Of a stretch of DNA of 64,000 nucleotides, positions 28,725-57,879 are shown piece after piece. The notes under the pieces are model-generated. The model saw only the letters and a program-made list of their open reading frames with translations. It made no database searches and was not told where the DNA came from. The stretch is taken from NCBI GenBank assembly GCA_028687755.1, contig JAQTZL010000005.1, forward strand, positions 1-64,000. Direction: 5' to 3'. The DNA is from Candidatus Nanopelagicales bacterium. Its GTDB lineage: Bacteria; Actinomycetota; Actinomycetes; S36-B12. Made by a program: the position numbers and the translations under genes. Every line of letters begins with the position of its first letter. Position 1 is the first letter of the stretch.

Positions 28725-29831
28725 TCAGAAGTTGAGCATCTTCCGGGCCGCTCCCAAAGCCGCGACAGCTTGCCTCGGGAGAACACCGTTCCCGAGCGAC
28801 GCAAGTTGTTGGTTGGCGGTCAGCCCATGACACGCATCGGTCACCCATCCGGCCGGTAGCCCCATAAGCCATTCGACGAACGGGGGCGCCGGACGCGGAC
28901 CGGTCTTGTCGCTCAGAAGCGCCGGTGACGGAGCGGAGCGGCCAGTGATTCGCTCCCATCTGGTCACGGCTTCGGCGTATCGTCCCCAGCGTCGAAGAGC
29001 TGCCCGATCAACGACCACAGGCTCTCGGGCTCCTGGGTGCGCGGGTATCCGTGTGGTCCGTGGAGGGCGAGGTCGATAATCTGATGGCTCAGAGCGATCG
29101 TGCCCCGCCGTGCTTTCACCTGTTGCAGGGTCTCCCCGCCCCGAGACGCGTCCGACGCGAGTGGGGTCCGGAACAGCGCGGTGGGCGAGGATGAAGACCC
29201 GGTATCGGGGATGAGGTGCGCCGATAGCGGAAGCGGGTAAACCGATCCATTGCGCGTCATACCGGAGGTCGGCCAGGTCTCCCAAAACTGCTCCCGCTGC
29301 CCGAAGAGGTCGAGTTGCGGTTTCTCCCAAATGCCACGAATCGGATTCCACACTGCGAGAGGCTGCGTCGCTGGGGGTTGCGTCTTTGGGGTTGCGCTGC
29401 TCATCGTTGTCTCCTTCGGGAATCGCGCGGATCGCGGGTGCAGATAGCAGCCCGCGCACGTTCTCGATCACCACCCGTTCCGGTTGCAGAACGTCGATCG
29501 CTGCTGCCATGTGCGCCCAGAGTCCGGATCGAGTGCCGGGTTTCAGGCCGGCCATCTTCCCGACCGTGGATACGTCTTGGCAGGGGAACCCGCCGCAGAG
29601 GATGTCCACCGGCGGGACAGTGTTCCAGTTGATGGTGGTGATGTCGCCGAGGTTGGGGGCGTCGGGCCAGTGGTGGGAGAAGACACGGGAGACGGGTTCG
29701 TTTATCTCAGAGAACCAGATCGTCTTCGCTCCGAAGACTTCCTCCACGGCAAGGTCGAGTCCGCCGTAGCCGGAGAACAGCGACCCGACGCGTAGCGGCG
29801 CGGCCGGGTCGCTTGGAACCCTATTTGCCAT
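28725..29831 (-). CDS. Orphan C5-cytosine DNA methyltransferase
   Basis: This 368-residue enzyme has the expected motif order: I SLFSGYGGLDLA near the N-terminus, IV GGFPCQDVS with the catalytic Cys, VI IENVRG, VIII GAPHPRYRVFILAHR and C-terminal X-like ASLGNGVLP. No restriction endonuclease is adjacent, so it probably protects the element from host restriction or acts epigenetically. AGGAGG precedes the ATG. A 441-base second frame with its own strong ribosome-binding site lies wholly inside the gene, between motif VI and the target-recognition region. Confidence 0.92.
   Translation of the reverse strand: MANRVPSDPAAPLRVGSLFSGYGGLDLAVEEVFGAKTIWFSEINEPVSRVFSHHWPDAPNLGDITTINWNTVPPVDILCGGFPCQDVSTVGKMAGLKPGTRSGLWAHMAAAIDVLQPERVVIENVRGLLSAPAIRAIPEGDNDEQRNPKDATPSDAASRSVESDSWHLGETATRPLRAAGAVLGDLADLRYDAQWIGLPASAIGAPHPRYRVFILAHRAVPDPTRVGRVSGRGDPATGESTAGHDRSEPSDYRPRPPRTTRIPAHPGAREPVVVDRAALRRWGRYAEAVTRWERITGRSAPSPALLSDKTGPRPAPPFVEWLMGLPAGWVTDACHGLTANQQLASLGNGVLPRQAVAALGAARKMLNF
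28964..29404 (-). CDS. Nested gene inside the methyltransferase gene
   Basis: This 146-residue frame is read on the same strand but out of phase with the methyltransferase. It starts at an ATG with GAAGGAG six bases upstream. The protein does not look like random translation: WNPIRGIWEKPQLDLFGQ is followed by WETWPTSGMTRNGSVY and TPLASDASRGGETL. These Trp-Pro-Thr-Ser-Gly and TPxASD patterns are, as I recall, common in proteins encoded beside phage and element cytosine methyltransferases. Function is unknown. Confidence is limited because both frames cannot be checked for conservation here. Confidence 0.6.
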   Translation of the reverse strand: MSSATPKTQPPATQPLAVWNPIRGIWEKPQLDLFGQREQFWETWPTSGMTRNGSVYPLPLSAHLIPDTGSSSSPTALFRTPLASDASRGGETLQQVKARRGTIALSHQIIDLALHGPHGYPRTQEPESLWSLIGQLFDAGDDTPKP

Positions 29832-30111
29832 CGGCGAGCCTCCTGGGTCGGTGATCCTCGGAGCCGTGATGCTGCTCCGAGCTGGTCACCAACGAGGTGC
29901 ACGGTCGGCCCCACCGGCCTACGCCCAGGCCGCTCGCCACGCCCCCGCGTGCCGCGCCCAGAAGTTCGCTCGTCTGACCCCTTCGCGGTTCGCTCAAACG
30001 GGTTGTCACGCGTCTTGCAAGCGAGGCGCGCCGCCGTCCGAATGTGACCCCAAAAGTCACCTCGCCGCGGGCTGCGGAGCTCACCTTCGGGGTGAGGAAA
30101 GGCGGTGGCTG
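29832..30111. other. Divergent intergenic region, candidate oriT
   Basis: This 280-base space separates the methyltransferase and relaxase genes. It contains the small dyad GTGAC-cccaaaa-GTCAC near 30047 and several G+C-rich repeats. Origins of transfer often lie just upstream of MobF relaxase genes, but no nic site can be recognised. Confidence 0.3.
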
Positions 30112-33100
30112 GTGACGGTTTCGATGCGGGTGATGTCCGCCGGCGACGGCTACAAGTACCTCCTGCGCACCGTCGCCACCGGTGACGGCGGCCGGATGCT
30201 CTCGACACCGCTGACGAGGTACTACACCGAAGAAGGAACACCGCCCGGGCGCTGGATGGGATCAGCGGTCACCGCGCTTGGCCACGGCGCGCTCGGAGTC
30301 GGAGATGAAGTCTCCGAGGAGCAGCTTCAACGACTGATCGGGCAGGGCCGCGACCCCGTGACAGGCCAAGCGCTCGGCAGCCCGTACCGGAAGTACCCGA
30401 CCGTGGCCGAGCGAATCAAGCACCGCTCCGCACGTCTCGACGCCGATCTCCCCGTGACCGGGCGCGCGGAAGCGGTCGCCGCGATCGAGGCTGAGGAGAG
30501 CGCACACGGTGCACGGAAGGCGGTTGCGGGGTTCGATTTCACGTTCTCGATTCCGAAGTCCGCATCCGTGCTGTGGGCGGTATCGGATGCGGGGACGCAA
30601 TCGCTGATTGCGGACGCGCATCATGCGGCGGTTGCAGAGATGGTTGCGTTCATCGAACGCGAGGTTGCGGCAACCCGTGTCGGTGCCGCAGGACGCAACG
30701 GGGCGGTTGCGCAAGCCGATGTCTGCGGTGCGATCGCAACCGCGTTCGATCACTACGATTCGCGGGCGAGCGACCCGCATCTGCATACCCATGTCGTGAT
30801 CTCGAACAAGGTGCAGACCGTCCACGACGGCAAATGGCGCTCCCTCGACGGCCGCCCGCTACACGCCGCGACCGTCGCGCTCTCAGAACTCCACGAAGCC
30901 GTGTTCGCCGACCACCTCACCCGCGCGTTCGGTGTCGAGTGGCGGGCGCGCGACATGGGGCGCGACCGCAACCCTGCCTGGGCAATCGCGACGGTGCCGG
31001 AGAAACTGGTGGCAGAGTTTTCATGCAGGTCACGGCAGATTAACCAGGAGAAGAACCGTCTCATCGCCGAGTACGTTGCCCGTCACGGCAGGCAACCGTC
31101 GTTGGCGACCGTCATCAAGCTCCGGGCGCAGGCGACGTTGGCGACCAGACCGGAGAAGCAGGTTCGTTCGCTCGCGGACCTCACCGGCGAGTGGCGGGAG
31201 CGCGCGTCGCACCTGCTCGGTGAAGACGCCACCCGCTGGGCCCGAACCGTCACCGCCAACGACGTCCCGTTGCTGCTGCGCGCTGACGATGTGCCGTTGG
31301 ACGTGATCGCCTCGCTGGGTCGCAGTGTGGTTGAGGCGGTCGGTGAGAAGCGGTCGACCTGGCGCAGGTGGAACCTCACCGCCGAGGCCGCACGCCAGAC
31401 CATGCCCTACCGGTTCGCCAGCACGAGGGATCGCGAAGCAGTCGTCGGAATCGTCGTCGACGCGGCGGAACGTGCCTCCCTGCAACTCACGCCCCCCGAA
31501 CTCGCGTCCAGTCCGGCAGTGTTCCGCCGCTCTGATGACGCGAGCAGGTTCCGTCCGATCGCGTCGACGGTGTATTCGTCACCGGACATCCTGGCGGCCG
31601 AGGATCGGCTTCTCGAGCGCGCTCGCACCATGACCTCGCCCACTGTGCCTGTCGAGGTGGTCGAGAAGGTCGCTCGCCGCCCGGATCGCGACGGCCGACT
31701 CCTCGCCGACGACCAAGCCGCAGCCCTCGCCGCCGTTGCGACATCAGGCCGTGCAGTCGATGTGTTGGTCGGCCCGGCCGGGGCGGGAAAGACAACGGCG
31801 ATGCGCGCCCTGCGCACGGCGTGGGAGCGGGAGCACGGGCGCGGCAGCGTCGTCGGGCTGGCACCGTCAGCGGTGGCCGCGCAGGTCCTTGCCGATGATC
31901 TCGGTATCCGGACGGAGAACACCGCGAAATGGTGGCAAGACCACCAGAACACCGGCGCGTCATTCCGTAAGGGGCAGCTCGTGATCGTGGACGAAGCCTC
32001 CCTCGCCGGCATCCTTTCGCTGGATCGCGTCACTGCGCACGCGGTGGAGGTGGGTGCGAAGGTGTTGTTGGTGGGTGACTGGGCGCAGCTGCAATCCGTC
32101 GCAGCCGGCGGTGCGTTCTCCCTCCTCGTCCATGACCGCGACGACGCTCCCGAACTGGTCGACGTGCACCGATTCGTCAACGAGTGGGAGAAGACCGCCT
32201 CCCTCGACCTTCGCCACGGCCGCCCCGAAGCCATCGACGCCTACGCAGCTCACGGTCGCATCACCGGCGGGAACACCGAAGCGATGATCGACGCTGCCTA
32301 CACTGCCTGGCGCACCGATACCCTTGCCGGGGTTTCGACGGTGTTGATCGCGGACTCGAACGAATCCGTCCACGCACTGAACCAGCGCGCCCGCGCCGAC
32401 CTCATCCTCGACGGGACCGTGAACGCCGGCCGTGAAGTCGCCCTCCAAGGCGACGCCCGTGCCGGGGTCGGCGACACGATCATCACGAGGAAGAACGACC
32501 GCCGACTCCACACTCCGCGAGGGTGGGTGCGCAACGGGGACCGTTGGACAGTAACCGACGTTCGCGACGACGGATCACTCACCGCCCGCCGCGCGAACAG
32601 TCGCGGCACCGTGATCCTCCCCGCTGACTATGTCTCCGATCATGTTGATCTGGGTTATGCAGTGACGGCGCATAGGGCGCAAGGCATCACCATGGACACC
32701 TCTCATGTGCTCGTTGATCCGTCTACGACGCGGGAGAACCTGTATGTCGCGATGACTCGCGGCCGGCACGCGAACCTCGTCTACGTCGCCACCGACCGCC
32801 CCGACGACAACCACACCACTCCGCACCCGGCGGATGATCCTGATGTGACCGCACGGAGTGTTCTTTACGGGGTGCTGCAGCACGTCGGTGCCGAGCTTTC
32901 CGCGCACGAGACGATCACCGCCGAACACGAAGCCTGGGGGTCGGTGGGGCAGCTCGTGGCCGAGTATGAGACGATCGCGCAAGCCGCCCAACACGACCGT
33001 TTCGCCACCCTCATCCGCGAATCCGGTCTCGCCCCGGACGAAGCAGAAGACACGATCCGCTCCGACGCATTCGGCGCCCTCACCGCAGAGCTTCGGCGGG

Positions 33101-33660
33101 CGGAGGCGAACCACCACAACGTCGACGCCCTCATGCCGCGGCTGGTCGCGGCCCGCGGCTTCGGAGGCGCCGATGACATCGCCTCCGTCCTGCACCACCG
33201 TCTCGCCCGCGCCACTGAGAGGCCGGCTGGTTCTGGTCGTACCCGCAAGGCACCCCGTCTGATCGCCGGCCTCATCCCCGAAGCAACCGGGCCCATGTCC
33301 GCGGCGATGCGGAGGGCACTGACGGAGCGGCGCGAGTTGATCCAGCAGCGTACCGAAGCCATCCTCGACCAAGCCATTGCCGAACAGCAGGAATGGGTGC
33401 TCGCGCTCGGAGACACACCGGCAGAGACGAGGGCTGCGGCAGCGTGGAAACGGCAAGCACGAACCGTCGCCGCGTACCGCGATCGCTACGGCATCACCAC
33501 ACGCACGCCGCTCGGCCCAGCGCCCGATACCGATGCGCAGAAGATCGACGCGGCACGAGCGAAAGCCGCTCTCGCGAGGCTCCGAGACCTCGCGGGCGTC
33601 GATGGCAGCGATGACCTTTCGCGGACGGTGCGGCGCGAAGGGACGCGCCGGGGCCTGTGA
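30112..33660 (+). CDS. MobF relaxase-helicase (TraA-type)
   Basis: This 1182-residue protein nicks and unwinds element DNA for transfer. The N-terminal MobF relaxase has candidate Tyr residues in GDGYKYLLR and the metal-binding histidines in DPHLHTHVV near residue 222. The RecD-like helicase has Walker A GPAGAGKTTAM near 553, Walker B LVIVDEASLAG near 622 and the late motif AVTAHRAQGITMD near 850. A helical C-terminal tail follows. GTG 30112, after GAGGAAAGG, is preferred; the frame extends back to 29851 without a site. It is encoded divergently from the methyltransferase. Confidence 0.95.
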   Translation: MTVSMRVMSAGDGYKYLLRTVATGDGGRMLSTPLTRYYTEEGTPPGRWMGSAVTALGHGALGVGDEVSEEQLQRLIGQGRDPVTGQALGSPYRKYPTVAERIKHRSARLDADLPVTGRAEAVAAIEAEESAHGARKAVAGFDFTFSIPKSASVLWAVSDAGTQSLIADAHHAAVAEMVAFIEREVAATRVGAAGRNGAVAQADVCGAIATAFDHYDSRASDPHLHTHVVISNKVQTVHDGKWRSLDGRPLHAATVALSELHEAVFADHLTRAFGVEWRARDMGRDRNPAWAIATVPEKLVAEFSCRSRQINQEKNRLIAEYVARHGRQPSLATVIKLRAQATLATRPEKQVRSLADLTGEWRERASHLLGEDATRWARTVTANDVPLLLRADDVPLDVIASLGRSVVEAVGEKRSTWRRWNLTAEAARQTMPYRFASTRDREAVVGIVVDAAERASLQLTPPELASSPAVFRRSDDASRFRPIASTVYSSPDILAAEDRLLERARTMTSPTVPVEVVEKVARRPDRDGRLLADDQAAALAAVATSGRAVDVLVGPAGAGKTTAMRALRTAWEREHGRGSVVGLAPSAVAAQVLADDLGIRTENTAKWWQDHQNTGASFRKGQLVIVDEASLAGILSLDRVTAHAVEVGAKVLLVGDWAQLQSVAAGGAFSLLVHDRDDAPELVDVHRFVNEWEKTASLDLRHGRPEAIDAYAAHGRITGGNTEAMIDAAYTAWRTDTLAGVSTVLIADSNESVHALNQRARADLILDGTVNAGREVALQGDARAGVGDTIITRKNDRRLHTPRGWVRNGDRWTVTDVRDDGSLTARRANSRGTVILPADYVSDHVDLGYAVTAHRAQGITMDTSHVLVDPSTTRENLYVAMTRGRHANLVYVATDRPDDNHTTPHPADDPDVTARSVLYGVLQHVGAELSAHETITAEHEAWGSVGQLVAEYETIAQAAQHDRFATLIRESGLAPDEAEDTIRSDAFGALTAELRRAEANHHNVDALMPRLVAARGFGGADDIASVLHHRLARATERPAGSGRTRKAPRLIAGLIPEATGPMSAAMRRALTERRELIQQRTEAILDQAIAEQQEWVLALGDTPAETRAAAAWKRQARTVAAYRDRYGITTRTPLGPAPDTDAQKIDAARAKAALARLRDLAGVDGSDDLSRTVRREGTRRGL

Positions 33661-41721: not shown

Positions 41722-41949
41722 ATGGCCGAGTTCGAGTTCTGGGTGAACGGGATGACCTGCGAGCACTGCGAGCGTGCCGTCACTGCGGAGCTCTCCGCCC
41801 TTCCCGGCATCATCGATGTCCAGGTCGATGCCGCCTCCGGTCGTGTCAACCTGGGCCACGAAACGCCCGTTGATCTGAATGCGGTGGAGTCGGCAGTCGA
41901 GGACGCCGGCTACACGGTGCGGTCCTGGCCCACGACCACGAATGCCTGA
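41722..41949 (+). CDS. copZ: Copper chaperone, CopZ-like
   Basis: This 75-residue single heavy-metal-associated domain has the binding motif GMTCEHCERAV near the N-terminus. It would carry Cu(I) to the CopA ATPase encoded two genes downstream. ATG 41722 follows GAGGAG. Its stop overlaps the start of the CopD-CtaG gene by eight bases. The promoter region carries a BlaI/CopY-type dyad. Confidence 0.92.
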   Translation: MAEFEFWVNGMTCEHCERAVTAELSALPGIIDVQVDAASGRVNLGHETPVDLNAVESAVEDAGYTVRSWPTTTNA

Positions 41950-44011
41950 CGCCATCACCGCCAGCCCCGCTGCGGCACTCGTGCCCATCTCGGATCCTCG
42001 AATCCGCAGGCCCAGGAGCGCGGTGGCCGCGCTCCTGATCGGCGGGGCCGCCCTCGCCCTCGTCGTCTTCCCGGTCGTTGTGGCGGTCATGCTCGGGGAA
42101 GAACCGTACGACCGATTGCATGTCGGGTATCCCGGTGTCGATGTCGCCGTGGTCACCACGATCCTGCTTTCCGGTGCCCAGCTCGGAACCCTGGTCACCA
42201 GTGGGGCTCTGGTGCATGTGCTGTTTCTGCGAGACGCTCCAGCCCGTAAAGCGCGGTATCTCGAGGATGGTTTCGAGATCTCGGTGCTGCGCGTCGCCTC
42301 CGGTGTGTGGGCAACCTGCGCGGGTGCGTTGGTGGTCTTCGAAGCGCTCGACTCCAACGGCACTCCGTTGGAGCGACTGGCTACTCCCGGGGCGTTGCCG
42401 TATCTGTGGGAGGCGAGTTATGCGCCGAAGGCGTGGACGATCAGTTTCCTGGCGGCGTTGATCGTCTTCTTCGTCTCCTTCTTCGCAGAACGGTGGACGG
42501 GTTTGCTGATCCCGTTGTGGGCGACCGGAATCGCGGTGCTCGCACCTGTTGTCACCGGGCAAGTCCTCGTGGGACCGGACCACGACTTCGGCAGCGACGC
42601 CGCGATTTTCCAGACCGTCGCCGTGAACGCGTTCTTCGGAGCGGTCGTGGTTGCCGTCGTGCGCGTGGTCTCCGGGCGGCTTGTCTCGCCGCTGACCTTG
42701 CGGCGACTGTTCCGGATCGGAGCCGTCGCACTCCCCGTCGTCATCGTCTCCGATGTGGTCATCGCCGTGTTCAAGCTCGCCGGCGGCAGCATCACCGCCT
42801 CGCTGACCGGGTGGCTGATCCTCGCCGGCTTCGCCTGCCTGGTTGCGATCGCGGTGGCGTTCGTTACCGTCGCGACCCTCGCGCGACGGGGACGGCTGCG
42901 GGCGGGGCACATCACCGGACTCCTCTCCCTAGCGGCCGTGGCGGTGGCGGGGTGGACAGGTGTGGGCGTGGCGATGACACGGCAGCCGCCGCCGCAGTAT
43001 TTCGTGCCGACGAGCATCGAGCAGGTCTTCATGGGCTTCGAGGTCCCCGACGCTCCGACGCTGGATGTGTTGTTCGGGCAGTGGCGACCGAACCTGCTGT
43101 TCCTGGGTATCGCCGCAGCGGCGATCATCGTCTACTTGGTCGCCGTGCGCACGCTGCACAGGCGGGGTGACCGGTGGCCTCTCGGGCGGACAGCCGCGTG
43201 GATCGGCGGGTGGACCGTGGTGATCGTCGCGACGAGTTCCGGGTTCGGGAAGTACTCCGCCCCGGATTTCGGGGTGCACATGATCGTGCACATGTCGCTG
43301 AATATGCTCGCCCCCGGGCTTCTCGTCCTCGGCGGCGTAGTCACGTTGCTGCTGCGGGCATCCCGCTCGGACCGAACCAAGCCCGCGGGCCTGCACGACT
43401 GGATCACGTGGGTGCTGCACTGGCGGGTGCTGCAGTTCCTCTACAACCCGCTGATCGTGTTCGTGGTCTTCATCGGCTCCTACTACGGCCTCTATCTCAC
43501 CGGCATCTTCGGCGACTACATGCGGTTCCACTGGGCGCACCAGCTCATGAACCTGCACTTCCTCATCGTCGGCTACCTCTACTACAGCCTCATCATCGGC
43601 GTCGACCGGCCACCACGCCCCCTGCCGCACATCGGCAAACTCGGGTACGTGCTGGCGGCGATGCCGTTTCACGCGTTCTTCGGGGTGATCCTGATGACCA
43701 GCCCTAACATCATCGCCGAGACCTTCTACCGCTACCTCGACCTGCCCTGGGCCGACCTGCAGGCTCAGCAGTATCTCGGTGGCGGTGTCGCCTGGGCGGG
43801 TGGGGAGATCCCGCTGATGATCGTCATCGTCGCACTTGGCATCCAATGGAGCAGGCAAGACGCCAGGGACGCCCGCCGTAAGGACCGGCACTTCGACACC
43901 GGCCGCGATGACGAGTACGACGCCTACAACCAGATGCTCCAACGCCTCACCGATCGCGACGCGACCCGCCTCGGCCCCCGACCGACCGTCCGAGAGGACA
44001 CCCACTCATGA
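41942..44011 (+). CDS. CopD/CtaG fusion membrane protein
   Basis: This 689-residue polytopic protein joins an N-terminal CopD-like half and a C-terminal caa3-type CtaG half. The N half has about eight membrane segments and LVTSGALVHVLFL. The C half contains HMSLNMLAPGLLVLGG and FHWAHQLMNLHFLIVGYLYY, with metal-binding His residues. Such fusions are common in actinobacterial copper clusters and are thought to move copper across the membrane or supply cytochrome oxidase. It starts at ATG 41942 and its stop overlaps the copA start. Confidence 0.9.
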   Translation: MPDAITASPAAALVPISDPRIRRPRSAVAALLIGGAALALVVFPVVVAVMLGEEPYDRLHVGYPGVDVAVVTTILLSGAQLGTLVTSGALVHVLFLRDAPARKARYLEDGFEISVLRVASGVWATCAGALVVFEALDSNGTPLERLATPGALPYLWEASYAPKAWTISFLAALIVFFVSFFAERWTGLLIPLWATGIAVLAPVVTGQVLVGPDHDFGSDAAIFQTVAVNAFFGAVVVAVVRVVSGRLVSPLTLRRLFRIGAVALPVVIVSDVVIAVFKLAGGSITASLTGWLILAGFACLVAIAVAFVTVATLARRGRLRAGHITGLLSLAAVAVAGWTGVGVAMTRQPPPQYFVPTSIEQVFMGFEVPDAPTLDVLFGQWRPNLLFLGIAAAAIIVYLVAVRTLHRRGDRWPLGRTAAWIGGWTVVIVATSSGFGKYSAPDFGVHMIVHMSLNMLAPGLLVLGGVVTLLLRASRSDRTKPAGLHDWITWVLHWRVLQFLYNPLIVFVVFIGSYYGLYLTGIFGDYMRFHWAHQLMNLHFLIVGYLYYSLIIGVDRPPRPLPHIGKLGYVLAAMPFHAFFGVILMTSPNIIAETFYRYLDLPWADLQAQQYLGGGVAWAGGEIPLMIVIVALGIQWSRQDARDARRKDRHFDTGRDDEYDAYNQMLQRLTDRDATRLGPRPTVREDTHS

Positions 44012-46263
44012 CGACGACAGACACCACCACACCTGTGGTCCTCGCTCCGGTGGAGCTCGACATCTCCGGGATGACCTGCGCGGCCTGCGCGGGACGCGTC
44101 GAGCGCGCACTGGGCAAGCTCGACGGGGTGACAGCGAGCGTCAACTACGCCACCGAACGCGCCATCATCACCGGCCTTCCCGACAACGATGTCGAGACGG
44201 CCATCCGGCAGGTCGAGAACGCCGGATACGGCGCGCACCTGCGCGATGGCAGCGACGACGCCTGGTCGACGCGCGCCACTGAGGTACGGATCTCGTCGCT
44301 CCGGAGGCGCCTGGCTGTGTCCGCGCTGCTCACCGTCCCGCTCATGGACATCACGATCGTCCTGGCCCTCGTCCCCGGATGGAGGTTCCCCGGTTGGGAA
44401 TGGGTGTGTGTGCTGATGGCGCTGCCGATCGTGACATGGGCGGCGTGGCCGTTCCACCGGGCGACGCTCCGCAACCTCCGTCACGGTGCGGTCAGCATGG
44501 ACACGCTCGTCTCGCTCGGCATCGCCGCCTCATTCGGGTGGGCGATCCTGACCCTGCTGCTCGGGTTCGGCACCACGGAAGCCGCCGGCTACTGGCTCGG
44601 CTTCGGCGTCACCCCCGCAGGTGCGGACTCCATCTATCTCGACGTCGCCGCCGGGATGACGACCTTCCAGCTCGCGGGCCGGTACTTCGAAACCCGTTCA
44701 CGCCGTAAGGCCGGTGATGTCCTCGGCGCTCTGAACGCCCTCGCCGCCACCCACGTTCGGGTCGTCCGCGACGGCGTCGAGACGATCGAGCCGGCCACCG
44801 CACTCCGCGTCGGCGATACGTTCGTCGTCCTCCCGGGAGAGACGATCCCCGCTGATGGCACCGTCCACGCGGGGGCCGCTGCGGTGGATGCGAGCATGAT
44901 GACCGGGGAACCCGTGCCTGTGCCGGTCGGCCCCGGAGCCTTAGTGACCGGCGGGACCATCAGCACTGACGGGCGCCTGGAAGTGACCACGACTTCGGTC
45001 GGCGCCAACACCCAGCTCTCTCAGATGGCTGCGCTCACCGAGCAGGCCCAGGCGCGCAAAGCGCGCGTGCAGAACCTCGTCGACCGGATCGTCACTTGGT
45101 TCGTCCCCGCCGTCATCGCGCTTGCGATCATCGTCACCATCGCGTGGACTCTTACTGGCACTCCGTTTGCGCAGGCGTTCGGCATCGGGATCAGCGTCCT
45201 CATCATCGCCTGCCCCTGTGCACTCGGGCTCGCGACGCCGACTGCGCTCATGGTCGGGATCGGGCGGGCAGCGACCCTCGGCATCCTGATCAAAGGCCAC
45301 GACGCCCTCGAAGCCTCTGGCACCATCACCACCGTCGTTCTCGATAAGACCGGAACCCTCACCACCGGACGCATGACCGTCGAAACCGCGACCCCGTTTG
45401 GAATCGCCGATCATGAGCTGTGGCGTTTGGCCGCGTCCGTCGAGCAGGGTTCCGAGCATGCGATCGCCCACGCCATCCAGGACGCCGCCCGCGCCCACGT
45501 TACTGACCTTCACCCGTTGGAGGACTTCACCGCCCTCCCCGGTCTCGGTGCTACCGCCCGCATCACAGGGAGCACCCTCCTCGTCGGGAACGCCGACCTG
45601 CTCCGCGAGCACGGCGTCGACCTCACCCCGGCGGTCGCCGCTCTCTCGGATGCCCACGAGCACGGGCACACCGTCGCACTGGTCGCTCGCGACGGGCAGC
45701 TGATCGGGCTGCTTGCCCTTGCCGACACCATCAAGCCTGGAGCTGCGGACGCCATCACAGCGCTGCACGCCCAGAACCTCACCACCGTGCTCCTCACCGG
45801 CGACAGCCCTGCTGCCGGTGCTCGCATCGCGGCCGAACTCGGCATCGAACGCTTCCACGCCGGTGTCGCCCCTGCCCAGAAGGCTGACGTCGTCCGCGAA
45901 CTCCAAGCAGCCGGAGAGAAGGTCGCGATGGTCGGCGACGGCATCAACGACGCCATCGCCCTCGCCACCGCCGACCTCGGGCTCGCGCTCGTGTCCGGCA
46001 CCGACATCGCCCTCAAAGCCGCGGACATCATCCTCGTCCGCGACGACCTCCACGTCATACCCGATGCGATCGCGATCTCCCGCAAGACCCTCCGCACCAT
46101 CCGCACCAACCTCGGCTGGGCCTTCGGATACAACATCGCCGCCATCCCCATCGCTGCAGCCGGGTTCCTGAACCCTCTCATCGCCGCCGCCGCGATGTCC
46201 CTGTCCTCTGTGCTCGTCGTCTACAACAGCCTCCGCATCCAGCGCGTGCGCAGCACCCGGTAG
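44008..46263 (+). CDS. copA: Copper-transporting P1B-type ATPase
   Basis: This 751-residue Cu(I) exporter has an N-terminal metal-binding domain with GMTCAACAGRV. It has eight predicted membrane segments, the CPC motif IACPCALGLATP near 399, the phosphorylation motif DKTGTLT near 446 and the hinge MVGDGINDA near 642. Length and motif order are typical of P1B-1 ATPases. It is translationally coupled to the CopD/CtaG gene and fed by the CopZ chaperone. Confidence 0.96.
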   Translation: MTTTDTTTPVVLAPVELDISGMTCAACAGRVERALGKLDGVTASVNYATERAIITGLPDNDVETAIRQVENAGYGAHLRDGSDDAWSTRATEVRISSLRRRLAVSALLTVPLMDITIVLALVPGWRFPGWEWVCVLMALPIVTWAAWPFHRATLRNLRHGAVSMDTLVSLGIAASFGWAILTLLLGFGTTEAAGYWLGFGVTPAGADSIYLDVAAGMTTFQLAGRYFETRSRRKAGDVLGALNALAATHVRVVRDGVETIEPATALRVGDTFVVLPGETIPADGTVHAGAAAVDASMMTGEPVPVPVGPGALVTGGTISTDGRLEVTTTSVGANTQLSQMAALTEQAQARKARVQNLVDRIVTWFVPAVIALAIIVTIAWTLTGTPFAQAFGIGISVLIIACPCALGLATPTALMVGIGRAATLGILIKGHDALEASGTITTVVLDKTGTLTTGRMTVETATPFGIADHELWRLAASVEQGSEHAIAHAIQDAARAHVTDLHPLEDFTALPGLGATARITGSTLLVGNADLLREHGVDLTPAVAALSDAHEHGHTVALVARDGQLIGLLALADTIKPGAADAITALHAQNLTTVLLTGDSPAAGARIAAELGIERFHAGVAPAQKADVVRELQAAGEKVAMVGDGINDAIALATADLGLALVSGTDIALKAADIILVRDDLHVIPDAIAISRKTLRTIRTNLGWAFGYNIAAIPIAAAGFLNPLIAAAAMSLSSVLVVYNSLRIQRVRSTR

Positions 46264-46289
46264 GAGAACGGCAGGAGACAGATATCCCG

Positions 46290-46478
46290 ATGGAGTTCTT
46301 CCTACCGCTGTCCCTTGCTGCGATGCTCTACCTCCTCGTGCTCTGGATCGCCCTCACCGCACCACCACGGCCCCCACAGCTCTCAGATCCCACCCTGCGC
46401 GACGAATGGGACTCCGTCGCCTTTCGGGGGGTACGCAAAGGCGTCGAACGCCTGCGCGGGCGATTGCGCAGGCGGTAG
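46290..46478 (+). CDS. Small membrane protein after copA
   Basis: This 62-residue protein has one N-terminal membrane segment (about 5 to 25), a Pro-rich linker and a basic tail (GVRKGVERLRGRLRRR). An AGGAG lies 13 bases before the ATG. It resembles small membrane proteins seen after copper ATPase genes in some actinobacteria, but its function is unknown. It probably ends the copZ-copA operon. Confidence 0.6.
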   Translation: MEFFLPLSLAAMLYLLVLWIALTAPPRPPQLSDPTLRDEWDSVAFRGVRKGVERLRGRLRRR

Positions 46479-46533
46479 CGCCCTCGCGGGAGCCTGGACC
46501 GGCTCACCCGGGGAGGCGCTGTGCGCAGGCGTT

Positions 46534-46563
46534 TTGACCTCGCGATCGCCACCCCGCTAGTGT
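46534..46563 (+). promoter_or_regulatory. Promoter of the DUF5134-YcnI-CopC operon
   Basis: TTGACC, an 18-base spacer and TAGTGT (TANNNT type). The BlaI/CopY-type dyad begins three bases after the -10, placing it over the start of transcription. Confidence 0.6.
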
Positions 46564-46565
46564 AT

Positions 46566-46583
46566 CTACTACATGTTGTAGAG
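46566..46583. promoter_or_regulatory. BlaI/CopY-type operator, site 3
   Basis: CTACTACATGTTGTAGAG is the most symmetrical of the four copies and resembles the TACTACATATGTAGTA operator known for mycobacterial BlaI. It lies between promoter and start codon. Confidence 0.75.
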
Positions 46584-46597
46584 ATAAGGTGTGTGGC

Positions 46598-47188
46598 ATG
46601 CTGTCTGACCCGGTGCTCCAATGGACGCTGACACTCGCCTTCACCGCGACCGCCGCGTACGCCACACTGCGACTCTTCACAGACCGCAAGCCGTTGCTCA
46701 TCGTGGGCAACGCTTTGCACCTGGTGATGAGCCTCGTGATGATCGCCATGTGCTGGCCGTGGTGGACCGTACTGCCGTCACTCCCGCAGACGCTCTTCTT
46801 CTCGGCCGGCACGGCCTGGTTCGCTGCGGTGGTGCTCCTCCAGGCGCGGCGTCGCATCACGCGGGCTGCCGTTGGCGGACACAGCGTGTGGCATCAGGTG
46901 GCACACGCGGTCATGATGCTCGCGATGGTCTGGATGCTCCTCGCGATGCCCTCCGGAACCGACGGTGCGACGCATGACCATCACCATGGAGGGCTCGAGC
47001 CGTGGGCGGCCCTGACCGGGGTTGCCGTCACCGCGGCGCTGACGACGTCCGGGGTCGTCTTCCTCGTCGAGCTCGTCCGCTGCCTGCGCGGGCGTACCAC
47101 CTGGCTCGGACATACCGGGGATGTCGCCTCCGGGGCGCTGATGAGCTTCGGCATGGCAGCGATGTGCTGGCCGATGATCACCGGCTGA
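46598..47188 (+). CDS. DUF5134 membrane protein
   Basis: This 196-residue protein has five to six membrane segments and a His-rich loop (DGATHDHHHGG), a likely metal-binding site. It matches the DUF5134 family of actinobacterial copper loci. The start may be ATG 46598 or GTG 46589; AAGG precedes the ATG. It is the first gene after the operator and promoter pair and is followed by the YcnI gene after a small hairpin. Confidence 0.78.
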   Translation: MLSDPVLQWTLTLAFTATAAYATLRLFTDRKPLLIVGNALHLVMSLVMIAMCWPWWTVLPSLPQTLFFSAGTAWFAAVVLLQARRRITRAAVGGHSVWHQVAHAVMMLAMVWMLLAMPSGTDGATHDHHHGGLEPWAALTGVAVTAALTTSGVVFLVELVRCLRGRTTWLGHTGDVASGALMSFGMAAMCWPMITG

Positions 47189-47213
47189 ACACCCTTTGAC
47201 CACCACCATCAGT

Positions 47214-47232
47214 CCGCCGGCGCTGTCGGCGG
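47214..47232 (+). terminator. Hairpin between DUF5134 gene and ycnI-like gene
   Basis: CCGCCG and CGGCGG form a 6-bp stem with a seven-base loop. No T-run follows, so it may process or stabilise the transcript. Confidence 0.4.
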
Positions 47233-47254
47233 GTCAACAAGAAAGAGAGACACC

Positions 47255-47992
47255 ATGAGTACACGACGCAGCAAGAGGCCCCTTCTGATCGGAACCGGAG
47301 CCCTCGCGGCTACTGCCGCGCTGGTTCTCGGCGGTGCGGTCGCCGCGAACGCACACGTCAGCATTGCCGAAGGCCCGGTCGAGGCCGGATCGTACTCGAT
47401 CCTCACCTTCGGGGTGCCGCATGGATGCGATGGGTCTGCGACGACGGAGGTAGCGATCCAGATCCCCGAGGGCATCAACGCCGTCACCCCCACCCGCAAC
47501 AGTCTCTACTCCGTCGAAAAGGTGATGGAAGAGCTCGACACCCCCATCACTGACAGTCACGGCAACGAGGTCACCGAACGGGTCGCGCAGGTCGTCTACA
47601 CGGCCTCGACGCCCCTGCCCGATGGGCAGCGGGACGCGTTCGAGCTCTCGCTGCAGATCCCGGAGGACGCCGCAGATACCACTCTGTACTTCCCGACTGT
47701 GCAGACGTGCGAGCAGGGTGAGACCGCCTGGGTGCAGATCCCGGAGGAAGGGCAGGACGGCCACGAGCTTGATGCACCAGCCCCGAGCGTCGACGTCGTC
47801 GCAGCCAGCGACGCTGGATCGCACGGGCACGGCGACAGCACCGAGGACACCGTCGATGCGCACGACGAGGATTCGGCATCCGCGGCAGCTCCTGCAGATC
47901 AGACGCCGCTCGTGGTCACCTCGCTCGCCGTCGGGGCCCTCGGCCTGATCGTCGCGGTGATCGCCCTGCTGAGGGGACGCAAGAAGGCGTGA
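47255..47992 (+). CDS. YcnI-family copper-binding protein
   Basis: This 245-residue exported protein has a signal peptide (about 8 to 33) ending at ANAHV; the following His1 of the mature protein is the copper-binding residue of this family. The DUF1775 domain follows (about 34 to 180), then a His/Asp-rich linker (SHGHGDSTEDTVDAHDED) and a C-terminal membrane anchor. It would bind copper outside the cell and hand it to the CopC-CopD protein encoded next. Confidence 0.92.
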   Translation: MSTRRSKRPLLIGTGALAATAALVLGGAVAANAHVSIAEGPVEAGSYSILTFGVPHGCDGSATTEVAIQIPEGINAVTPTRNSLYSVEKVMEELDTPITDSHGNEVTERVAQVVYTASTPLPDGQRDAFELSLQIPEDAADTTLYFPTVQTCEQGETAWVQIPEEGQDGHELDAPAPSVDVVAASDAGSHGHGDSTEDTVDAHDEDSASAAAPADQTPLVVTSLAVGALGLIVAVIALLRGRKKA

Positions 47993-49710
47993 GCACTCTC
48001 ATCGCCGGGAAACGCGCACCGCGACGCGGCTCCGCCCTGGTCCTCCGTGCGCTGGCAGCCCTCCTGCTCGGCTGGTTGCTGGCGCTCACGGGAGCACAGG
48101 CGGCGTCCGCGCATGCCGAGCTGCTGTCCACGACACCGGAGAACGGTGCCGTGCTCGATGAGGCTCCCGCGGAGGCGGTGCTGACGTTCAACGAGCCCGT
48201 ACAGCTCATCGACGGCAGCATCCGCCTGTTTCCCGGCGATGAAGACCCCCTCACACTCGACGCGCACGTCAACAACACCAGCGTCATCGCCGTGCTCCCC
48301 GCCGACCTCGCCGACGGAGCCTATGCGCTGAGCTACCGCGTCGTCTCAGCAGACGGGCACCCCATCTCCGGCGCGATCACCTTCACCATCGGAGACGGCC
48401 AGGCGGACAGCGCGACGGCTCCCATCGTGGAAACCGCGACCCCGCAAGATACCCAGTTCGCCGTCAGCGCCCTGACAGCACTGCAATACCTCTCGCTCCT
48501 GGTCTTCGCCGGCCTGATCCTGTTCGAGCGAATGGTGCTGCGCAGCATCACGCCGTCCGATCGCCGGTCCAGAAACATCCTGCGACTGACCGGCATCGGA
48601 GCGGGGACCGCCTCGCTGCTGCTCATTCCCACGTCAGCGCTCAACGTGACCGGAAACCCACTGACCGCGGTGATCGATCCGACTGCATGGTGGTCGGGTG
48701 TCTTCTGGGCACCGGTCGCTGCGGCCATCATCGTATGCGCAGGACTCGTCGGAGCCACAGTGCTATCGACACGACAGCTGGGGAACAGGGGGATGCGCCT
48801 GCTCGCCGTGCTGCTGCCGCTCCTCGCATTGGCCGCGCCGGTGCTCGTCGGACATACCCAACTGATGGAACCACGGGCGCTGATCATCGCCGCCGACCTC
48901 GGACACCTTCTCGCCGGCTCCTTCTGGACCGGAGGAGTCCTCGGCCTACTCCTGTTCCTCGCGGCAACCCGCGTGACCAACGCCCAGGAGGCATGCACCT
49001 CACCTGCTCTCGCCGCGAAGGTCGTGCAGAGGTTCTCCGGCGTCGCGGTCTGGAGCGTCGTTATCCTCGCCGTCAGCGGAACTGTCATGGGCGTCATGAT
49101 CGTCGGAAGCGTCGACGCTCTGATCACGACCAGCTACGGGCTCACCCTCCTGCTCAAGATCGGGATCGTCATCCCCGTGATCGCGATCGCCGCCTACAAC
49201 AGGACCCGACTCCTCCCACGGATCGCGTCACGACCGACCGCACGCATGCAATGGCAGACCCTGACCCGAACCCTCAGCTACGAAGCCGCACTCCTCATCG
49301 CGGTCCTGCTCCTGACCGGCTTCCTCACCAACCTCAGCCCCACACACGACCACCACGACACACCAACCGAGATCACGGCAGCCACCGCTCAGACCGTCAC
49401 GATTGACGCGGACGCCCAAGGGCTATCGCTGAGGGGCGAACTCGAACCAGCACTGACCGGCGACAACAAGATCACCTTCACGCTCGAATACGACGGCAAA
49501 CCAGTCGCCCCCGACGAGGTGACCATTCGCACCACTCAACCTGAGCACGACCTCGGACCGTTCCAGTCCGTAGCCGAACTCGACCCTGAAACCGGTGAAT
49601 ACTCCGCCCACCTGGACATGCCCGTCGCAGGTGAATGGGAGATACAGGTACTCGCCCGCGTATCCACCTTCGCTCAGCCGATCGTCACGATACCTGTCAC
49701 CGTCAACTAA
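47989..49710 (+). CDS. CopC-CopD fusion protein
   Basis: This 573-residue protein has a signal peptide followed by a CopC domain (HAELLSTTPENGAVLDEAP; mature His first). Eight membrane segments of CopD follow (about 155 to 440), then an extracytoplasmic beta-rich tail (about 465 to 573). It is expected to bind and move copper at the cell surface. GTG 47989 overlaps the stop of the YcnI gene, so the two are translationally coupled. It is the last copper gene before the composition change. Confidence 0.93.
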   Translation: MSTLIAGKRAPRRGSALVLRALAALLLGWLLALTGAQAASAHAELLSTTPENGAVLDEAPAEAVLTFNEPVQLIDGSIRLFPGDEDPLTLDAHVNNTSVIAVLPADLADGAYALSYRVVSADGHPISGAITFTIGDGQADSATAPIVETATPQDTQFAVSALTALQYLSLLVFAGLILFERMVLRSITPSDRRSRNILRLTGIGAGTASLLLIPTSALNVTGNPLTAVIDPTAWWSGVFWAPVAAAIIVCAGLVGATVLSTRQLGNRGMRLLAVLLPLLALAAPVLVGHTQLMEPRALIIAADLGHLLAGSFWTGGVLGLLLFLAATRVTNAQEACTSPALAAKVVQRFSGVAVWSVVILAVSGTVMGVMIVGSVDALITTSYGLTLLLKIGIVIPVIAIAAYNRTRLLPRIASRPTARMQWQTLTRTLSYEAALLIAVLLLTGFLTNLSPTHDHHDTPTEITAATAQTVTIDADAQGLSLRGELEPALTGDNKITFTLEYDGKPVAPDEVTIRTTQPEHDLGPFQSVAELDPETGEYSAHLDMPVAGEWEIQVLARVSTFAQPIVTIPVTVN

Positions 49711-55060: not shown

Positions 55061-55123
55061 AGTGGAGGCAGAGGCAAGCGTTGCCACGCCCCAGCAGACG
55101 GTTGACGTTAGGCTCACAGTCAA

Positions 55124-55132
55124 CGGGGGGGG
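55124..55132 (+). repeat. Nine-G homopolymer next to the MmeI-like start
   Basis: A run of nine G residues ends five bases before the ATG of the restriction-modification gene. It overlaps or replaces the ribosome-binding site. Such tracts slip readily in other bacteria. Confidence 0.6.
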
Positions 55133-55137
55133 GTGTG

Positions 55138-57879
55138 ATGAAGGCTCGAAGTCTGCCGGAGATTGAGGCGGCTCTTGAACAGCTCGTGGATAGATGGAGT
55201 CGGTATTCCGGGACCGAGCGCTCCGGGTCGCAAACCTTCCTCAACCAGCTCATCCGTGCTTATACCGGTGCCGAGGATGTCATCGAGGCTGGGGCGACTT
55301 TCGAGCAGTTCGGGCCACGCGACGAGGGCGTCGGTTTCATGGACCTCTACTGGCCCGGGGTCACCATCGTCGAGATGAAGGCGCCAAAGGAGTCGGGGCG
55401 CCTGGACTCGCACCGTGCTCAGGTCCTGGACTACTGGCGAAATAGCGCTGACCCCGCCACGGGCACGCCTGCGCCGCCGTTCCTCGTGCTATGCAGCATC
55501 CGCAGCTTCGAGGTCTGGGAGCCGGGCCGGTTCCCGAATGCTCCGCGCGACGTCTTCACGATCGAGGAACTCCCAAGCCGGGCAGAAGCGCTCCTGTTCC
55601 TCGCCGGCAAGACTCCTGTTTACGGTGGGCCCGGGGCAGCTGTCACGCAGGAGGCCGCCCAGCACATGGTCGACCTGTACTTCCAACTGCTCGATCGTGA
55701 GGCGGCGCCGGCCGAGGAGCTCAGGCGCTTCATCGTCCAGGCAGTGTGGGTGCTTTTTGCCGAAGACCTCGGACTGGTGCCCGAGCGTGTATTCGCTAAC
55801 CTCATTGACGCTCTCGCTACGGACTCAACTCGCGACAGCGCCGTCGAGATCACTGACCTGTTCCGTAGGTTCAACCAACCGGACGCTGAGCGACGAGATC
55901 GGGGCCGTAGCGTGGCAGTGCCGTACGTGAACGGCGAGTTGTTTGCTGCGACTCCAGAGGTACCGCTCAACCCGGGAGAGTTACGCCACTTGCAGGCCGC
56001 GGCCGCTTACGACTGGCGCTGGGTCAACCCGACGGTCTTTGGATCCCTCCTCGAGGGCTGCCTCGGACATGATCATCGATGGGAACTCGGCGCGCACTAC
56101 ACGAACGAGGAGGACATCCTCTCGATTGTCCGTCCGGTCATCGTGCACCCGTGGGCAGCGCGGATCGAGGCTGTCGACGACCCTAAGAAGGCTGTGAAGC
56201 TACTGGTCGAACTGACCCAGTTCCATGTACTCGATCCCGCGATGGGCTGCGCCAACTTCCTTGCAATCGCCTACCGCGAGCTGCGCAAGCTCGAGCGACG
56301 ATTGTCCGACAGGATCTCCGATCTCTACACAGCCGCCGGTATGTTCCCTCCCACGCTTCCTCGCTACCCCCTCCGCAACATCCACGGCATCGAGATCGAT
56401 CCCTTTGCAGTCGAGATCGCCAAGGCGACCCTGTGGATGACTCATGCACTCATGGCACGCCAGTACGGAGCAGCCGAGGACCCCTTGCCGTTGCAGTCTC
56501 TCGACACACTTGACTGCGCCGATAGCCTCAAGATCGAGTGGCCGAAAGTCGACGCGATCATTGGGAACCCGCCTTTCCACGGTGACCGTCGTCTGCGTGA
56601 GGTTGTGGGGGACGCGTACATCGACGGGCTCAAGTCCGAGTTCGGTGTCGGCGTGAAGGACCACTGCGTTTACTTCTTCCGCAAGGCGCATACGCACCTT
56701 AGCAAGGGTCAACGTGCCGGACTTGTCGCGACGAACACGATCAGTCAGGCCAAGAACCGTGACGCTTCCTTGGTGTGGATCGTCGCAAATGGCGGCACGA
56801 TCTTCGAGGCCACCAGCACCAAGCCGTGGTCCGGCGACGCAAAGGTGCATGTGTCGATCGTGTGCTGGGAGAAGGGCGTCGTCCCGCCCCCTCCCTACTT
56901 ACTCGATGGTCGCGAAGTTGAGGGCATCACGCCGTCGTTGACGGCAGGAACAGAGCATCGTGCAGCCGTGAAGCTCGCCGGGAACGCGGGCGTCGGATTC
57001 GTTGGGTACTTCCCAAACGGAATGGGGTTCGTCCTTGACGAGGACGAGGCAGCTTCGCTGCTCGGCGGGACCGATGCCGACTATTCGACCGTTGTGTTCC
57101 CCTTCATCAATGGCGAGGACATCGTCGATCGGGTTTCGTCCGACCCCAGCCGATGGATCATCGACTTCGGGAGAAGGGCTCTCGAAGAGGCTGGGGCGTT
57201 TCCCGCTGCCCTTGACATCGTTCGCGAGAAGGTAAAGCCGTTCCGAGATGGAGTCAGCCGCAAGGCTCACCGCGAACGCTGGTGGCAGTTCGCCGAAACG
57301 CGCCCAGGCATGACGGCGGCCCTCGCGCCCCTCACCAGATACGCGCTGGCAGGCCTCACGGGGAAGCGCTGGATCGTCGCGTGGGGTCAGCCAGGGTGGC
57401 GCCCGTCGCACGCGCTCGCGGCCTTCGCGTTCGACGACGACTACTCCTTCGGAGTGCTTGCCTCCCGGCCACACGACCTATGGGCGCGCGCCAATGGGTC
57501 GACTCTCAAGGGCGACCTGCGATACACGCCGAGCACTTGCTTCGACACGTTCCCGTGGCCGACCAACCCGAACGACGGTAGGCGCGCGACCGTGGCCGAG
57601 GCCGCGCGCCGGATCGTGACGGAGCGGAGCGCCGCGTGCCAGTCACTCGGCAAAGGCTTGACCGCTGTTTACAACGCGATGGATGAGGGAGCGTTCGTGA
57701 ACCTAAAGAAGGCACACGACGACCTCGACCGCGCAGTCCTGGCCTGCTACGGCCTTCCTGCTTCACTAATCAAGGACCGACCTGCCTTGTTGAGTGCCCT
57801 GTTCGACCTCAATGAGAAGGCTGCTGCGGACTCCATCTATGACCCTTTCGGAAGGCGAGACTCCGGTGGCCATTCCTGA
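55138..57879 (+). CDS. MmeI-like single-chain restriction-modification enzyme (Type IIL)
   Basis: This 913-residue enzyme combines nuclease, methyltransferase and target recognition. The N-terminal nuclease motif is D-x9-EMK in MDLYWPGVTIVEMKAPKE, the same spacing as in MmeI. The N6-adenine methyltransferase has motif I DPAMGCANFLAIAYREL and motif IV IGNPPFHGD. The C-terminal part should hold the target-recognition region. Length is close to MmeI (about 919). ATG 55138 is preferred over TTG 55081. An mrr-like fragment starts inside its last codons. Confidence 0.92.
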   Translation: MKARSLPEIEAALEQLVDRWSRYSGTERSGSQTFLNQLIRAYTGAEDVIEAGATFEQFGPRDEGVGFMDLYWPGVTIVEMKAPKESGRLDSHRAQVLDYWRNSADPATGTPAPPFLVLCSIRSFEVWEPGRFPNAPRDVFTIEELPSRAEALLFLAGKTPVYGGPGAAVTQEAAQHMVDLYFQLLDREAAPAEELRRFIVQAVWVLFAEDLGLVPERVFANLIDALATDSTRDSAVEITDLFRRFNQPDAERRDRGRSVAVPYVNGELFAATPEVPLNPGELRHLQAAAAYDWRWVNPTVFGSLLEGCLGHDHRWELGAHYTNEEDILSIVRPVIVHPWAARIEAVDDPKKAVKLLVELTQFHVLDPAMGCANFLAIAYRELRKLERRLSDRISDLYTAAGMFPPTLPRYPLRNIHGIEIDPFAVEIAKATLWMTHALMARQYGAAEDPLPLQSLDTLDCADSLKIEWPKVDAIIGNPPFHGDRRLREVVGDAYIDGLKSEFGVGVKDHCVYFFRKAHTHLSKGQRAGLVATNTISQAKNRDASLVWIVANGGTIFEATSTKPWSGDAKVHVSIVCWEKGVVPPPPYLLDGREVEGITPSLTAGTEHRAAVKLAGNAGVGFVGYFPNGMGFVLDEDEAASLLGGTDADYSTVVFPFINGEDIVDRVSSDPSRWIIDFGRRALEEAGAFPAALDIVREKVKPFRDGVSRKAHRERWWQFAETRPGMTAALAPLTRYALAGLTGKRWIVAWGQPGWRPSHALAAFAFDDDYSFGVLASRPHDLWARANGSTLKGDLRYTPSTCFDTFPWPTNPNDGRRATVAEAARRIVTERSAACQSLGKGLTAVYNAMDEGAFVNLKKAHDDLDRAVLACYGLPASLIKDRPALLSALFDLNEKAAADSIYDPFGRRDSGGHS

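What the first reader, a model, noticed from the sequence alone, without database searches (positions are those of the whole stretch)
28964..29404. Complete gene nested out of frame inside the cytosine methyltransferase gene
Seen: a 146-codon frame entirely inside the methyltransferase, starting at ATG with GAAGGAG six bases upstream, and encoding protein-like motifs (WETWPTSGMTRNGSVY, TPLASDASRGG). The outer frame still carries methyltransferase motif VIII in the same DNA. Dual coding over more than 400 bases with its own ribosome-binding site is unusual, and the inner protein resembles, from memory, proteins accompanying phage methyltransferases.
Basis: partly seen in the sequence, partly recalled or inferred. 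Interest (0 to 1): 0.65.

Follow-up and report, generated by a model that had tools for sequence, protein, structure and literature searches.

The report
Second methyltransferase gene hidden out of frame
A stretch of a bacterial DNA-methylating enzyme's gene is read in two frames at once: the second frame makes its own conserved protein, most likely the DNA-recognition partner of that same enzyme, and the arrangement recurs in phages and bacteria of several phyla.

Summary
A 146-codon ORF (28964-29404, minus strand) with SD GAAGGAG and ATG lies in the +1 frame inside a 368-aa C5-cytosine methyltransferase gene (28725-29831, minus). One open frame proves nothing here: 56% of synonymous recodings of the outer gene leave it open. 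The comparative evidence is decisive. About 45 relatives keep the same SD, start and stop. In the 3' half of the overlap, selection acts on the inner frame (dNN/dNS 0.18; outside 0.65-0.74), and the outer protein drifts (dNN/dSN 0.98). In the 5' half both frames are constrained. Every one of 77 viral relatives found by the inner protein alone sits in +1 over methyltransferase motifs VI-VIII. The inner frame encodes methyltransferase parts: in other lineages the same +1 frame continues into motif IX, or into IX and X. The catalytic ORF then has only I-VIII, or I-VIII plus X. I conclude that the inner gene is a second, probably target-recognition, subunit of a split C5 methyltransferase. The closest precedents are M.EcoHK31I and M.AquI. 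The layout here differs from both: IX and X stay in the catalytic chain and only the recognition-like part is nested. Subunit function is inferred, not tested.

The parts
28725..29831 (-). Outer ORF: C5-cytosine DNA methyltransferase, 368 aa, motifs I-VIII, IX-like and X
   Evidence: PF00145 E 2.3e-31; TIGR00675; motif columns invariant in A1; M.HhaI is the best PDB relative
28964..29404 (-). Inner ORF, 146 aa, +1 frame of the outer ORF; conserved nested gene
   Evidence: purifying selection
29411..29417 (-). Shine-Dalgarno GAAGGAG of the inner gene, 6 nt before its ATG
   Evidence: sequence; conserved in relatives; GGA at the overlapping outer Gly codon in 31/33 vs 19% background
29243..29278 (-). 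Inner motif TWPTSGMTRNGS, +1 reading of the outer motif GDLADLxYDAQW
   Evidence: 77 of 77 inner-selected viral loci share this overlap; Leu codon choice follows the inner frame
29060..29176 (-). Inner recognition-like module LFRTPLASDASRGG...GTIALSHQIIDLALH, homologous to the LLPTPxASD modules of overlapping or in-line phage methyltransferases
28971..29183 (-). Outer residues 217-287: linker between motifs VIII and IX that drifts neutrally in the outer frame while the inner frame is constrained
   Evidence: outer dNN/dSN 0.98 [0.63-1.42], inner dNN/dNS 0.18 [0.13-0.26]
29568..29594 (-). Outer motif IV GGFPCQDVS with the predicted catalytic Cys84
   Evidence: invariant P83 C84 Q85; role from knowledge of C5 methyltransferases
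29451..29471 (-). Outer motif VI VIENVRG
   Evidence: E123 N124 V125 invariant
29184..29225 (-). Outer motif VIII IGAPHPRYRVFILA, dual-coded with inner SAHLIPDTGSSSSP
28833..28883 (-). Outer motif IX-like segment PFVEWLMGLPAGWVTDA; in other lineages its counterpart lies in the inner frame
28755..28805 (-). Outer motif X LASLGNGVLPRQAVAAL

Best explanation
The locus encodes a two-polypeptide C5-cytosine methyltransferase from one stretch of DNA. The outer frame makes the catalytic chain (motifs I-VIII, IX-like, X). Ribosomes also start at an internal SD and ATG and make a 146-aa second chain in the +1 frame. That chain is homologous to the recognition-domain end of related methyltransferases, in which the same +1 frame carries the recognition modules together with motif IX or with IX and X. 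The two chains probably assemble into one enzyme: the outer supplies catalysis and cofactor binding, the inner supplies target recognition. The likely role is to protect a conjugative element from host restriction. Shown: the inner gene is conserved, has its own conserved start signal and is under purifying selection; wherever its viral relatives were examined they overlap a methyltransferase. Inferred: expression, complex formation, target recognition and the anti-restriction role.
For: Selection: inner dNN/dNS 0.18 (3' half) and 0.50 (5' half) vs 0.65 and 0.74 outside; outer dNN/dSN 0.98 in the 3' half. Replicated in enterobacterial-type phage methyltransferases (0.63 falling to 0.32-0.44) and actinophages (0.96 falling to 0.55, dSN halved). 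Codon choice: in 56 outer-selected viral genes one conserved Leu is never CTC (background 46%) and the Leu three codons on is never CTG (background 38%), as TWPxSGM requires. The +1 frame is open over 288 nt in 63/65 and 57/59 nonredundant loci; the +2 frame in 3/65 and 11/59. Start signal conserved. Methyltransferase identity of the inner frame: PHROG 1008 is matched by the inner protein (residues 4-92) and, further on in the profile, by the outer C-terminus (279-359). Layouts: L237, L057 and L205 have ORF1 I-VIII with ORF2 inner+IX+X. Seven loci, L214, L226, L239, L243, L246, L251 and Salmonella phage S9-5, have outer I-VIII+X with inner+IX. Motif IX, where recognised, is in the +1 frame in 51 of 51 loci. 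Two-polypeptide C5 enzymes with this kind of split exist: M.AquI and M.EcoHK31I (PMC3404938). Mobile element: a TrwC relaxase diverges from the methyltransferase here and in 50 of 80 genome loci.
Against: No expression or activity data. AlphaFold models of the inner protein (pLDDT 68) and of an ORF2 (pLDDT 63) are not confident. Foldseek gave no match at E<=0.001; its weak hits are mostly C5 methyltransferases over short stretches. The window inner protein lacks motif IX. The outer chain alone has every catalytic motif, so it could be active without a partner. Leucobacter relatives L118 and L146 carry an inner stop with an intact outer gene.
Confidence: 0.76

Rival explanations
1. The inner gene is real but makes an independent small protein (for example a regulator or anti-restriction factor) that is not a methyltransferase subunit and merely travels in this gene.
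For: In the window the outer ORF keeps motifs I-X, so it could act alone. Some conjugative elements carry anti-restriction genes; an ArdC-like gene lies nearby.
Against: In other lineages the same +1 frame continues into motifs IX or IX-X that the outer frame lacks. The inner protein was not found away from a methyltransferase: 77 of 77 viral loci overlap one.
Confidence: 0.15
2. The two frames are joined by programmed +1 ribosomal frameshifting into one fused methyltransferase.
For: Some relatives have motifs I-VIII in one frame and IX-X in the +1 frame.
Against: The conserved N-terminal part of the inner frame lies upstream of any useful shift point and would be skipped. The inner SD and start codon are conserved. 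In the window the outer frame already reads through to motif X. No slippery site was searched for.
Confidence: 0.05
3. The inner ORF is a by-product of high G+C and of conservation and codon bias of the outer protein.
For: The ORF alone is expected by chance (56%); TWPTSGM is the +1 reading of the conserved DLADLxYDA.
Against: Periodicity and dNN/dNS switch to the inner frame. Inner identity is far above the synonymous null. Leu codon choice is contrary to background. A 42% G+C Bacteroides plasmid keeps a 177-codon +1 ORF, null maximum 141 in 5,000 shuffles.
Confidence: 0.02
4. The inner ORF is a decaying remnant of an ancestral second subunit, made redundant when IX-X moved into the outer frame.
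For: The window layout keeps IX-X in the outer frame; a few relatives have inner stops (L118, L146, L123).
Against: Strong purifying selection on the inner frame, and conserved SD and start, in 33 nonredundant relatives.
Confidence: 0.02

Closest known systems
M.EcoHK31I (two-polypeptide C5 methyltransferase, YGGCCR)
   Same: Two polypeptides, the larger with motifs I-VIII and X, the smaller with IX (PMC3404938). From memory, not verified here (Lee et al. 1995 was not held), the smaller is encoded within the larger in another frame. The type-E relatives found here (L214, L226, L239, L243, L246, L251, S9-5) share this division of motifs.
   Different: In the window motif IX is in the outer chain and the nested chain carries only the recognition-like part. 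The cited paper places the predicted recognition domain of EcoHK31I in the larger chain. Homology to the EcoHK31I small chain could not be tested because its sequence was not held.
M.AquI (two-subunit C5 methyltransferase)
   Same: [quoted passage not shown] matches the ORF1/ORF2 layout of L237, L057, L205 and Jinkies.
   Different: The window outer chain carries IX and X itself, and the inner gene is fully nested.
PHROG 1008, 'DNA methyltransferase' (phage ORF2-type proteins)
   Same: The window inner protein matches its positions 61-149 at E 6.3e-13, and the outer C-terminus matches 228-314.
   Different: In the window these two halves lie in different reading frames.
Single-chain C5 methyltransferases such as M.HhaI
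   Same: The outer chain has the catalytic core; M.HhaI aligns over residues 12-130.
   Different: The stretch between VIII and IX, where the recognition domain would be, is not conserved in the outer frame; the overlapping frame is conserved instead.

Membership tests
C5-cytosine DNA methyltransferase (outer ORF) | PF00145 profile match and motifs I, IV (PCQ), VI (ENV), VIII, X | tested here: met
M.EcoHK31I-type two-polypeptide methyltransferase | Second polypeptide encoded by an overlapping out-of-frame gene | tested here: met
   That EcoHK31I itself is nested is from memory.
M.EcoHK31I-type two-polypeptide methyltransferase | Motif IX carried by the small polypeptide | tested here: not met
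   The window inner protein ends before any motif IX; it is in the outer frame. Met in type-E relatives.
M.EcoHK31I-type two-polypeptide methyltransferase | Sequence homology to the EcoHK31I small polypeptide | not tested
   Sequence and paper not held
M.EcoHK31I-type two-polypeptide methyltransferase | Both polypeptides needed for methylation | not testable with these tools
   needs an experiment
M.AquI-type split methyltransferase | Large chain I-VIII only; small chain recognition region plus IX-X | tested here: not met
   The window outer chain has IX-like and X. Met by L237, L057, L205.
Target-recognition subunit | Fold of a C5 methyltransferase recognition (small) domain | tested here: inconclusive
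   Low-confidence models; no Foldseek match at E<=0.001
Same-strand overlapping gene pair under selection | Purifying selection on the alternative frame | tested here: met

The most novel reading that the evidence does not exclude
A whole clade of C5 methyltransferases, spread over Actinomycetota, enterobacterial phages, Bacteroidota and Cyanobacteria, keeps its DNA-recognition domain in the +1 frame of its own catalytic motifs. The enzyme is then made from two out-of-frame proteins of one gene. In some lineages the recognition modules expand in the inner frame while the outer frame is kept open only as a linker, and the division of motifs IX and X between the frames has changed repeatedly.
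Probability: 0.65. Interest if true: 0.8.

Novelty: new variant of a known kind. Interest (0 to 1): 0.66.

Why it matters
Long same-strand dual coding under measurable selection on both frames is rare in cellular genomes, and annotation often keeps one frame and drops the other. If the inner chain is the recognition subunit, many 'orphan' phage and plasmid cytosine methyltransferases are annotated as half enzymes. Heterologous tests with only the annotated ORF may then fail or mislead about specificity. It also gives a tractable system for asking how overlapping genes arise and last: in part of the overlap the outer frame drifts where the inner is selected, and parts of one enzyme have moved between frames.

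Tried and rejected
Chance open frame: not excluded by the ORF alone, excluded by comparison. Pfam, NCBIfam and PDB sequence searches with the inner protein found nothing significant. First inner profile search failed because a wrongly framed row was included, then repeated. AlphaFold and Foldseek were not confident. One search used the outer frame by a one-base slip and was discarded. One search had wrong coordinates. One search stopped half-way and was repeated; one search crashed and was repeated. A DNA search in E. coli genomes with the S9-5 gene found only four records; one of them, read out, has an outer internal stop. Literature searches for overlapping or nested methyltransferase genes found only the M.AquI/M.EcoHK31I mentions.

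Full report
Observation. On the minus strand, 28725-29831 encodes a 368-aa C5-cytosine methyltransferase (PF00145, E 2.3e-31). Inside it, 28964-29404 is a 146-codon ORF shifted by +1, with GAAGGAG six bases before its ATG. All details of the finding are correct; the strand is minus.

Is it more than chance? Taken alone, no. Recoding the outer protein with local codon usage leaves those 146 codons open in 56% of trials. The argument rests on relatives. Fifty-some loci from Leucobacter, Microbacterium, Propionibacterium, Janibacter and others encode the same outer protein. About 45 keep the inner ORF end to end, nearly all with GAAGGAG or a close variant, a six-base spacer, an ATG and a stop at or near the same place. 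Inner proteins match the window at 58-90%. Synonymous recodings of each relative's outer protein reach at most 33-47%.

Selection. In the +1 frame every third-position change of the outer codon falls on the second position of an inner codon, so the frames can be separated. Outer codon positions 1/2/3 differ by 0.13/0.08/0.36 before the overlap and 0.22/0.17/0.59 after it. They differ by 0.18/0.13/0.26 in the first half of the overlap and 0.42/0.20/0.17 in the second half. An OLGenie-style count gives inner dNN/dNS 0.18 [0.13-0.26] in the second half and 0.50 [0.35-0.69] in the first, against 0.65 and 0.74 outside. In the second half the outer protein is unconstrained (dNN/dSN 0.98). So residues 144-216 (motifs VI-VIII) look truly dual coded. 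Residues 217-287 carry selection only on the inner protein; the outer frame merely stays open to reach motifs IX-X. The method is my own approximation of OLGenie, and pairs of sequences are not independent; bootstraps are over codons.

Further tests. Among 56 actinophage-type genes chosen by the outer protein only, the conserved Leu of GDL is CTG, TTG or CTT but never CTC (46% elsewhere), and the Leu of ADL is never CTG (38% elsewhere). The inner TW/LPxSGM dictates this; shared ancestry weakens the count but not the direction. The +1 frame is open over 288 nt in 63/65 viral and 57/59 genomic nonredundant loci, the +2 frame in 3/65 and 11/59. The Gly codon in the SD is GGA in 31 of 33 relatives against 19% elsewhere. 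Two further homologue sets repeat the selection result: enterobacterial-type phages (0.63 in the first 105 codons, 0.32-0.44 later) and actinophages (0.96 before, 0.55 over VI-VIII with a wide interval 0.34-0.94, dSN 0.60 to 0.29).

What the inner protein is. It matches PHROG 1008 'DNA methyltransferase' at positions 61-149, and the outer C-terminus matches positions 228-314 of the same profile. The reason shows in the relatives. A search with the inner motif alone returned 77 viral loci, every one in +1 over LGDLADLGYDAQW...GAPHxRxRVF or its variants. Three layouts occur. (B) ORF1 holds motifs I-VIII and stops; ORF2 begins inside ORF1 and holds the inner domain, LLPTPxASD modules, WGxYxPAIxRWE and motifs IX-X (L237, L057, L205, Arthrobacter phage Jinkies, and Micromonospora genomes such as L162). 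(E) The outer ORF holds I-VIII and X, the nested +1 ORF holds the inner domain and motif IX (L214, L226, L239, L243, L246, L251, Salmonella phage S9-5). In 80 loci chosen by the S9-5 outer protein, plus three added by hand, every recognised motif IX (51) was in the +1 frame; in the other 32 the pattern I used did not match in any frame. (A) The window type: outer I-VIII, IX, X; inner domain and one module nested. A Bacteroides plasmid (42% G+C) and a Nostoc plasmid have layout E, with motif X degenerate in Nostoc; in Bacteroides the 177-codon +1 ORF exceeds all 5,000 synonymous shuffles, in Nostoc P is 0.007. A sample of the window's class has the inner domain in 31 of 395 genomes.

Mechanism. 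Motifs I-VIII form the catalytic and cofactor-binding lobe; recognition lies between VIII and IX (general knowledge of C5 methyltransferases). In the window that interval is neutral in the outer frame and conserved in the inner. The inner protein is homologous to what fills that interval in layouts B and E. The simplest reading is a heterodimer in which the nested protein supplies target recognition. Natural two-polypeptide C5 methyltransferases are known: M.AquI splits I-VIII from IX-X, and M.EcoHK31I puts IX on the small chain (PMC3404938). That the EcoHK31I small chain is nested in another frame is my memory of Lee et al. 1995, which was not held. The window does not meet the motif-IX criterion, so it is a variant and not a member. 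Structure prediction did not help: pLDDT 68 and 63, no significant fold match.

Setting. The gene diverges from a TrwC relaxase; a TraG-type coupling protein, serine recombinase, ArdC-like protein and an MmeI-type restriction-modification enzyme are in the window. Fifty of 80 genome loci have the same relaxase beside the methyltransferase. Protection of a conjugative element against restriction is the likely use; this is inference.

Limits. No expression data. Homologue sets overlap in ancestry. The function of the inner chain is inferred from homology and layout. The library searched holds only open-licence papers, so prior description of this clade elsewhere cannot be excluded.

Noticed in passing
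29851-33660 and 40-23385, 55081-57879: Conjugative-element genes: TrwC relaxase diverging from the methyltransferase, TraG coupling protein, serine recombinase, ArdC-like gene, prim-pol; an MmeI-type restriction-modification enzyme also lies in the window.
   Followed up: partly
41879-49710: Caa3_CtaG, P-type metal ATPase and CopC/CopD genes: a copper-handling cluster near the element.
   Followed up: no
L007:1145-2221: Gordonia phage Keitabear: methyltransferase matches at 1145-1516 and 1829-2221 in one open frame with an annotated HNH gene (1212-1988) out of frame over them; the methyltransferase CDS is annotated only from 2009.
   Followed up: no
L233, L228, L248: The inner frame carries long arrays of LLPTPxASDG modules while the outer frame stays open for hundreds of codons as a low-complexity linker (ADADxxG...), apparently the other-frame reading of the modules; possibly multi-specific recognition modules.
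   Followed up: partly
L118, L146, L123, L014, L097, L130: Natural breakage: inner stop with intact outer in L118/L146 (and inner stop in L123), outer frameshift with intact inner in L097, L130 and L014; in L014 only the inner ORF is listed in the plasmid gene table.
   Followed up: partly
L006 and several phage records: Annotators choose different frames for the same kind of locus: in Actinomyces phage xhp1 the inner ORF is called the methyltransferase and the true N-terminal part is unannotated.
   Followed up: partly
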